DNA from: Truepera sp. bin119
Lineage (GTDB): Bacteria; Deinococcota; Deinococci; Deinococcales; Trueperaceae
Reading direction: 5' to 3'
Assembly (NCBI GenBank): GCA_002239005.1
Contig: MPNL01000023.1
Span: forward strand, 1-49,373
DNA: 49,373 nt
Position 1 is the stretch's first letter. Each line of letters starts with the position of its first letter. Of the stretch, positions 2,186-21,654 are shown piece after piece. The position numbers and the translations under genes are program-made. The notes below the pieces were generated by a model, which was not told the origin of the DNA, ran no database searches, and worked only from the letters and a program-made list of their open reading frames with translations.

Positions 2186-2226
2186 TCCGGTCGGCTCGGG
2201 CGTGGCGAGTGGAGGAGATTAAGAAA

Positions 2227-2253
2227 GCGCCCCCCGACCTGTTCGGGGGGCGC
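2227..2253 (-). terminator. Rho-independent terminator, read on the minus strand
   Basis: GCGCCCCCCGA (2227-2237) and TCGGGGGGCGC (2243-2253) form an 11-bp perfect stem with a 5-nt loop. On the minus strand the stem is followed by TTTCTTAATC, a U-rich tail; on the plus strand it is followed by CGGTTAC, with no U run. The terminator therefore fits a transcript coming from the right, such as the element at 2259-2588, though it may also slow transcription leaving the methyltransferase gene. Confidence 0.6.
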
Positions 2254-2258
2254 CGGTT

Positions 2259-2588
2259 ACCCGCCTCTTCTTGAGGGAAGCGGAAATCCCCGCATTAATG
2301 AGGAGGCGTACTCCGGTTACCCTCGACGGGCACCTCCACTGGTCATTTCACATCTATTAATATGGACCACCTCCTTTCCGTGGTAGCGACAGTGTAAGGT
2401 ATCTAGCGCCGGAAATCTAGAGGTCTTCTTAAGTGGACCTCCTACAAAAGCAGAAGTTCAACGCCTAGGCCATGTCCTATCAGAAGGCTCAAAGACCTGT
2501 CGCCAGAGGCGTTGGCATTAAAGAGGTTTGTGCGAATGCAGGCTGGTATAACCGACTCTCGCCACTCCGATTACAAGAAGAGGCGGGT
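2259..2588 (-). ncRNA. Candidate structured non-coding RNA or short inverted-repeat element
   Basis: No convincing ORF fills this 330-bp stretch, yet it is highly structured. Its two ends are perfect 15-bp inverted repeats: ACCCGCCTCTTCTTG at 2259-2273 and its complement at 2574-2588. Inside lie further helices: 2280-2293 (GCGG/CCGC), 2302-2306 with 2333-2337 (GGAGG/CCTCC), 2366-2370 with 2380-2384 (ACCAC/GTGGT), 2420-2425 with 2436-2441 (GAGGTC/GACCTC), and a longer-range pair 2459-2465 with 2508-2514 (CAACGCC/GGCGTTG). On the minus strand, end pairing followed at once by a strong terminator is the usual layout of a free small RNA. I could not match it to RNase P RNA, tmRNA, SRP RNA or 6S RNA. 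A non-autonomous transposon is the alternative, but I see no target duplication. Confidence 0.45.
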
Positions 2589-18364: not shown

Positions 18365-21318
<2,954 letters not shown>

Positions 21319-21382
21319 TTTAGGACTTATTCCTCAAGACGCGCGTTAGCTCAAGATCTCCTATTCCCTGTCGCTATTTTTT

Positions 21383-21501
<119 letters not shown>

Positions 21502-21578: not shown

Positions 21579-21654
<76 letters not shown>

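What the first reader, a model, noticed from the sequence alone, without database searches (positions are those of the whole stretch)
2221..2588. Unassigned ~330-nt structured RNA candidate with paired ends and its own terminator
Perfect 15-bp complementary ends (2259-2273 and 2574-2588), at least five internal helices and, on the minus strand, an 11-bp GC-rich stem followed by TTTCTT directly after the 3' end. No ORF fills it and I could not match it to RNase P RNA, tmRNA, SRP RNA or 6S RNA. The layout is that of an independent small RNA; a short non-autonomous transposon is the main rival.
Basis: partly seen in the sequence, partly recalled or inferred. Interest (0 to 1): 0.72.

Follow-up and report, generated by a model that had tools for sequence, protein, structure and literature searches.

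The report
Ribosome-binding small RNA with tiny gene
This is a real, independently transcribed ~165-nucleotide RNA, found once per genome in several distant groups of bacteria, that carries a near-perfect complement of the ribosome's own RNA tail followed by a 10-15-codon gene whose start, open frame and stop are kept while its peptide is not, so it probably works by being engaged or translated by ribosomes rather than by making a protein.

Summary
The conserved RNA is window 2386-2221(-), ~165 nt. The upstream half is not part of it: it holds a decayed IS5-like transposase relic (2435-2513) and an arm (2574-2588) whose 15-bp match is real but absent from 29 relatives. The core is single-copy in 32 Trueperaceae genomes, syntenic where inspected (bioY / Fe-S reductase), and present in other Deinococcota, Latescibacterota/Gemmatimonadota and Actinomycetota, where it merges with the Rfam sRNA Ms_IGR-5; it resembles alphaproteobacterial CC2171. 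Its 5' end pairs 15-16 nt with the 16S rRNA tail. Directly behind lies a micro-ORF, found in every copy examined. In 30/30 Trueperaceae the start is AUU/AUC/AUA, never AUG, the codon class IF3 represses and infC uses in these genomes. A long-range helix formed by the ORF's last codons covaries across phyla. The peptide is not conserved; start, frame and stop are. Best reading: a stand-alone micro-mRNA that acts through ribosome capture/translation, in Deinococcota gated by IF3. No expression or translation was measured here. Rfam lists two relatives as sRNAs of unknown function.

The parts
2221..2386 (-). conserved RNA core, about 165 nt, 5' end near 2386, 3' end at the terminator
   Evidence: R1 covariance match 146.5 bits, E 2.2e-38, exactly one per genome; alignment A1 of 26
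2391..2396 (-). -10-like element TACACT; a TANNNT lies at this place in the relatives inspected
   Evidence: sequence; relatives. No full sigma-70 consensus match in the focal genome
2364..2379 (-). extended Shine-Dalgarno GGAAAGGAGGUGGUCC, complementary to the 16S 3' tail GGAUCACCUCCUUUCU
   Evidence: 16 pairs, -29.8 kcal/mol; tail read in Trueperaceae G016 and G005
2317..2361 (-). micro-ORF AUU..UAA, 14 codons, (I)NRCEMTSGGARRG*, start 8 nt after GGAGG
   Evidence: all 30 Trueperaceae have an in-frame AUH start and a stop; in-frame stops 4 against 17.5 in shuffled loops
2380..2383 (-). P1 5' arm CCAC
   Evidence: pairs with 2336-2339 in 26/26 sequences, invariant so no covariation test; in core MFE
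2336..2339 (-). P1 3' arm GUGG
2365..2369 (-). P1b 5' arm UGGUC
   Evidence: 97.7% of cells paired, G-U changes only
2340..2344 (-). P1b 3' arm GACCA
2325..2334 (-). P2 5' arm GGUGCCCGUC = late codons of the micro-ORF, up to 8 nt before the end of the stop codon
   Evidence: covariation score 0.420 against 0.186 +/- 0.023 shuffled and at most 0.118 slid, across phyla
2255..2265 (-). P2 3' arm GGCGGGUAACC, abutting the terminator
2280..2293 (-). P3 internal hairpin, variable and covarying in relatives
   Evidence: helices 4 and 5, 74% of cells paired
2221..2253 (-). intrinsic terminator GCGCCCCCCGA-acagg-UCGGGGGGCGC UUUCUU
2435..2513 (+). decayed insertion-sequence fragment (IS5-like left end and transposase N-terminus MSYQK..), upstream of the RNA promoter; not part of the RNA
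   Evidence: dispersed copies G000:C68 and C88 at 81-88% identity; PF13613 HTH_Tnp_4 E 1.2e-4 in the C68 copy
2574..2588 (.). outer arm of the 15-bp inverted repeat; real but private to this genome

Best explanation
A stand-alone, ~165-nt structured micro-mRNA (regulatory RNA). Supported by sequence comparison: its 5' end can pair 15-16 nt with the 16S rRNA tail; a 10-15-codon ORF starts 7-11 nt behind; the ORF's late codons form the 5' strand of a long-range helix (P2) whose 3' strand abuts the terminator. Inferred: a 30S subunit docks on the exposed extended SD and initiates; translating to the stop codon melts P1 and P2, and without translation they close. The RNA therefore exists in a ribosome-bound/open and a free/closed state and reports or buffers translation-initiation capacity, the peptide being a by-product. 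In Deinococcota the start is kept in the class that IF3 rejects (AUU/AUC/AUA in Trueperaceae, mostly CUG in two other families), as in infC itself, so translation should rise when IF3 is scarce relative to 30S. Which output follows (sequestering 30S, exposing a 3' segment for another target, or changed RNA stability) is not known; sequestration through the over-long SD is the simplest.
For: Single-copy core in 32 Trueperaceae and seven further Deinococcota genomes, 15/41 genomes drawn from the Latescibacterota, 29/198 drawn from the Actinomycetota. 16S-tail duplexes of -26 to -30 kcal/mol in all six groups. Micro-ORF in every copy examined: 30/30 Trueperaceae AUC16/AUU11/AUA3, never AUG, length 39, 45 or 48 nt always in frame, stops UAA/UAG/UGA, pN/pS 1.19 in the variable part; CUG in 6 of 7 f2/f5, AUG in 14/14 Latesci-/Gemmatimonadota, mostly UUG in other Actinomycetota, AUG/GUG/UUG in Ms_IGR-5, GUG in CC2171-like. 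Stops avoided in frame 0 only: 4 against 23 and 34 in the other frames and 17.5 in shuffles, 0/2000. P2 covariation across phyla. infC in the focal genome and relatives starts AUA/AUU/AUC at the same SD spacing. IF3 represses such starts and autoregulates infC, and represses a GUC start on Streptomyces sigR (PMC5472188). Ms_IGR-5 homologues give ribosome-protected reads in M. abscessus and M. smegmatis (PMC4974804).
Against: No expression, toeprint or Ribo-seq data for Trueperaceae. Starts are canonical in nearly all copies outside Deinococcota, so IF3 sensing is unlikely to be the ancestral role. P1 is invariant and P1b varies only by G-U, so their support is conservation, not covariation. 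RNA constraint explains part of the ORF's conserved 3' half. Sequences are related, so counts are not independent events. In the focal genome a relic has replaced the upstream region that carries a CRP-type dyad in relatives, so its expression there is uncertain.
Confidence: 0.55

Rival explanations
1. It is an mRNA for a functional micropeptide; the peptide (TSGGARRG-end in Trueperaceae) does the work.
For: ORF conserved in all copies, C-terminal residues similar within Deinococcota and Latescibacterota.
Against: pN/pS 1.19 in the part free of RNA pairing; Ms_IGR-5 members have an alignable nucleotide sequence but read it in another register (TREVAAS rather than TSGGDCR), so peptides are unrelated; the conserved C-terminus coincides with P1/P2 strands.
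Confidence: 0.12
2. A pure decoy: the RNA blocks the anti-Shine-Dalgarno sequence of 30S subunits (hibernation-like brake) and the ORF is incidental.
For: 15-16-nt complementarity to the 16S tail in all groups; SD largely in an internal loop.
Against: A decoy needs no start codon, frame or stop, yet these are kept.
Confidence: 0.18
3. A leader-peptide attenuator controlling a downstream gene.
For: Micro-ORF, competing helix and terminator in the classical order; in most Latescibacterota/Gemmatimonadota loci inspected the rplM-rpsI-rpsB genes follow.
Against: In the window the next gene downstream is convergent; neighbours differ among lineages; Latescibacterota loci have a second terminator and a promoter-like sequence before rplM.
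Confidence: 0.1
4. Short non-autonomous transposon.
For: A real 15-bp inverted repeat and an IS relic in the upstream half.
Against: One copy per genome, neighbours conserved, inverted repeat absent in 29 relatives.
Confidence: 0.02

Closest known systems
Ms_IGR-5 (Rfam RF02471), actinobacterial sRNA
   Same: CAC/GUG and GGUCC/GGAC stems around a GGAAGGAGGU loop, micro-ORF ending in UAG/UGA, long-range P2 helix, terminator directly after; intermediates in other Actinomycetota and Latescibacterota score with both models
   Different: Focal copy 26 bits against a cut-off of 45; other reading register and peptide, canonical start codons; Rfam describes it as an sRNA, no micro-ORF or 16S pairing in the passages read
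CC2171 (Rfam RF01867), alphaproteobacterial sRNA
   Same: GAAAGGAGGUGAUCC matching the 16S tail, GUG start 7 nt later, stop in frame, terminator
   Different: 23 bits against a cut-off of 75; ORF 14-24 codons and a different 3' part; homology not established
infC (IF3 gene, AUU/AUC/AUA start) and Streptomyces sigR (GUC start)
   Same: IF3-discriminated start behind a strong SD (PMC5472188)
   Different: Those encode functional proteins; here the ORF is 14 codons in a free-standing RNA
Minigenes and leader peptides (general knowledge)
   Same: Very short translated ORF with strong SD
   Different: No co-directional gene behind it in the window, highly structured, conserved across phyla

Membership tests
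Ms_IGR-5 (RF02471) | score above Rfam gathering threshold (45 bits) | tested here: not met
   26.0 bits
Ms_IGR-5 (RF02471) | shared architecture: SD loop in P1, micro-ORF, P2 next to terminator | tested here: met
CC2171 (RF01867) | score above gathering threshold (75 bits) | tested here: not met
   23.2 bits
RNase P, tmRNA, SRP RNA, 6S RNA | match to the family covariance model | tested here: not met
   no such match at gathering score in the window, nor at E up to 10 in 2150-2830
MITE / non-autonomous transposon | multiple dispersed copies with terminal repeats | tested here: not met
   one copy per genome, repeat not conserved
leader-peptide attenuator | co-directional regulated gene downstream of the terminator | tested here: not met
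   convergent gene downstream in the window; Latescibacterota differ
IF3-regulated ORF | start codon other than AUG/GUG/UUG behind an SD | tested here: met
   30/30 AUH in Trueperaceae, 6/7 CUG in f2/f5
IF3-regulated ORF | expression responds to IF3 level | not testable with these tools
   needs reporter assays

The most novel reading that the evidence does not exclude
A pan-bacterial class of regulatory RNA that works by being translated: it senses free 30S / initiation-factor balance through an extended 16S-tail complement and a sacrificial micro-ORF whose translation flips a long-range helix; in Deinococcota it is wired to IF3 by an obligatory non-AUG start.
Probability: 0.35. Interest if true: 0.9.

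Novelty: new variant of a known kind. Interest (0 to 1): 0.74.

Why it matters
It ties an Rfam sRNA of unknown function (Ms_IGR-5), and possibly a second (CC2171), to RNAs in Deinococcota, Latescibacterota/Gemmatimonadota and further Actinomycetota, and gives all of them a testable role: ribosome engagement through the 16S tail and a micro-ORF selected for being translated rather than for its product. If the IF3 link holds, it would be a regulatory RNA controlled by start-codon fidelity, a mode I know only for protein genes such as infC and sigR.

Tried and rejected
Rfam at permissive threshold: PinT, Chloroflexi-1, CPEB3 and AS-pc02 hits judged chance. Whole 382-nt fold with paired ends: lowest energy, but the outer arm is not conserved. 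RNAalifold default structure (local CCC/GGG hairpin): its strands are nearly invariant; the long-range P2 has covariation. Variovorax, Rhodocyclales and similar pattern hits: no R1 match, judged coincidences within coding sequence. f4 hit G092/L191: no SD, false. 16S not held in the focal genome, so the tail was read in relatives. 'Anti-SD mimic' ACGCCUCC (2302-2309) as an internal lid on the SD: possible pairing but missing in several relatives. Literature searches for a described 16S-tail-complementary sRNA found none; the library is open-access only. R-scape and structure prediction of the micropeptide were not run.

Full report
Extent. The minus strand folds far below shuffles (z -5.5), the plus strand does not (z -0.8). 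A nucleotide search of 61 relatives found conservation only from query base ~205, i.e. window ~2396 downwards to the terminator. Aligned relatives (Trueperaceae by their record titles) share a TANNNT -10, then about 6 nt later UACCACGG..., and a ~150-170-nt RNA ending in an intrinsic terminator whose stem changes by compensation. A covariance model of 26 cores finds exactly one copy in 40 of 111 genomes searched in the phylum; one of the 40 (f4) is false. Neighbours are kept in the relatives inspected: bioY on one side, an Fe-S reductase gene on the other (sequence; Pfam of the window genes).

What is not part of it. Bases 2428-2513 recur at two other places in the genome; the C68 copy carries a DDE-transposase N-terminus (PF13613, E 1.2e-4) and the window copy has an IS-like end at 2435. 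It is a decayed insertion-sequence fragment, reading on the plus strand. The 15-bp inverted repeat is beyond chance in 60 block-shuffles, but no relative has it. I cannot explain its origin.

Structure. P1 (CCAC/GUGG) and P1b (UGGUC/GACCA) frame GGAAAGGAGG in an internal loop. P2 (GGUnCCCGYC with GRCGGGnAACC) joins the late codons of the micro-ORF to the segment before the terminator; alignment column 64/139 is CG10/UA8/UG8 and never broken. The core alone folds into P1, P1b, P2 and the terminator as its lowest-energy structure. Across 24 sequences from Deinococcota, Latescibacterota/Gemmatimonadota, Actinomycetota and Ms_IGR-5 members, P2 has a covariation score of 0.420 against 0.186 +/- 0.023 in shuffles and at most 0.118 when slid. 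P1 is invariant and P1b varies only by G-U, so those rest on conservation alone.

Ribosome complementarity. The 16S tail of Trueperaceae reads GGATCACCTCCTTTCT. The RNA pairs 16 nt with it (-29.8 kcal/mol); five other groups give -26 to -30.

Micro-ORF. Behind the SD lies an ORF in every copy examined. In Trueperaceae 30/30 begin AUC, AUU or AUA, never AUG, 7-9 nt after GGAGG; lengths are 39, 45 or 48 nt, so loop-length changes keep the frame; stops are UAA23, UAG6, UGA1. Stops in the variable loop are rare in this frame only (4 against 23 and 34; shuffles 17.5, 0/2000). pN/pS is 1.19 in the variable part. Ms_IGR-5 members read an alignable nucleotide sequence in another register (MYDNRTREVAAG-end). 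I infer that translation is selected, not the peptide.

Spread. A pattern scan of genome contigs, followed by R1, and group searches place the RNA in Latescibacterota, Gemmatimonadota (by record title) and Actinomycetota. RF02471 finds several of the same loci below its cut-off. CC2171-like RNAs of alphaproteobacteria share SD, start and stop, but homology is not shown.

Regulation. Many relatives (roughly 20 of 30) carry a GTGA-N6-TCAC-like dyad centred 42-44 nt upstream of the CAC, near the class-II activator position (summed score 181 against 150.8 +/- 3.6 in mononucleotide shuffles). The focal genome lacks it, the relic having replaced that region. infC in the focal genome starts with AUA at the same SD spacing, and relatives use AUA, AUU or AUC; this is the start class repressed by IF3 (PMC5472188).

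External support. Ms_IGR-5 homologues give significant ribosome reads in M. abscessus and M. smegmatis (PMC4974804), and Ms_IGR-5 is transcribed in Streptomyces and M. smegmatis.

Judgement. Shown by sequence comparison: an independent conserved RNA, its architecture, its 16S complementarity, a micro-ORF under frame but not peptide constraint, and a start-codon class shared with infC in Trueperaceae. Inferred: promoter use, 30S capture, translation-dependent opening of P2, IF3 gating, and any downstream output.

Noticed in passing
window 18365-21500: 23S-5S rRNA genes (and a tRNA at 21579) without a 16S gene anywhere in the 49-kb window; unlinked or unassembled 16S.
   Followed up: no
upstream of the RNA in relatives, e.g. 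L022, L028, L029, L017: CRP/FNR-type dyad GTGA-N6-TCAC about 42-44 nt before the CAC in many of 30 Trueperaceae, lost in the focal genome.
   Followed up: partly
L252 and relatives L245-L255: infC of Trueperaceae starts with AUA/AUU/AUC behind GGAGG-N8; in L249 (family f2) an in-frame UAG directly precedes the AUA start.
   Followed up: partly
L077, L113, L145: In Latescibacterota/Gemmatimonadota the RNA lies upstream of rplM-rpsI-rpsB genes, with a second terminator (GCGCCGCACGG..CGTGTGGCGCTTTTTT) in between.
   Followed up: partly
window 2574-2588 and 2259-2273: 15-bp perfect inverted repeat private to this genome, one arm in the RNA's 3' part, the other beyond the IS relic; origin unexplained.
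   Followed up: partly
L187, L188, L194-L197, L110: A (G)GCNAAUCC/AAUUCC-like motif precedes the P2 3' strand in most lineages but not Trueperaceae; role unknown.
   Followed up: no
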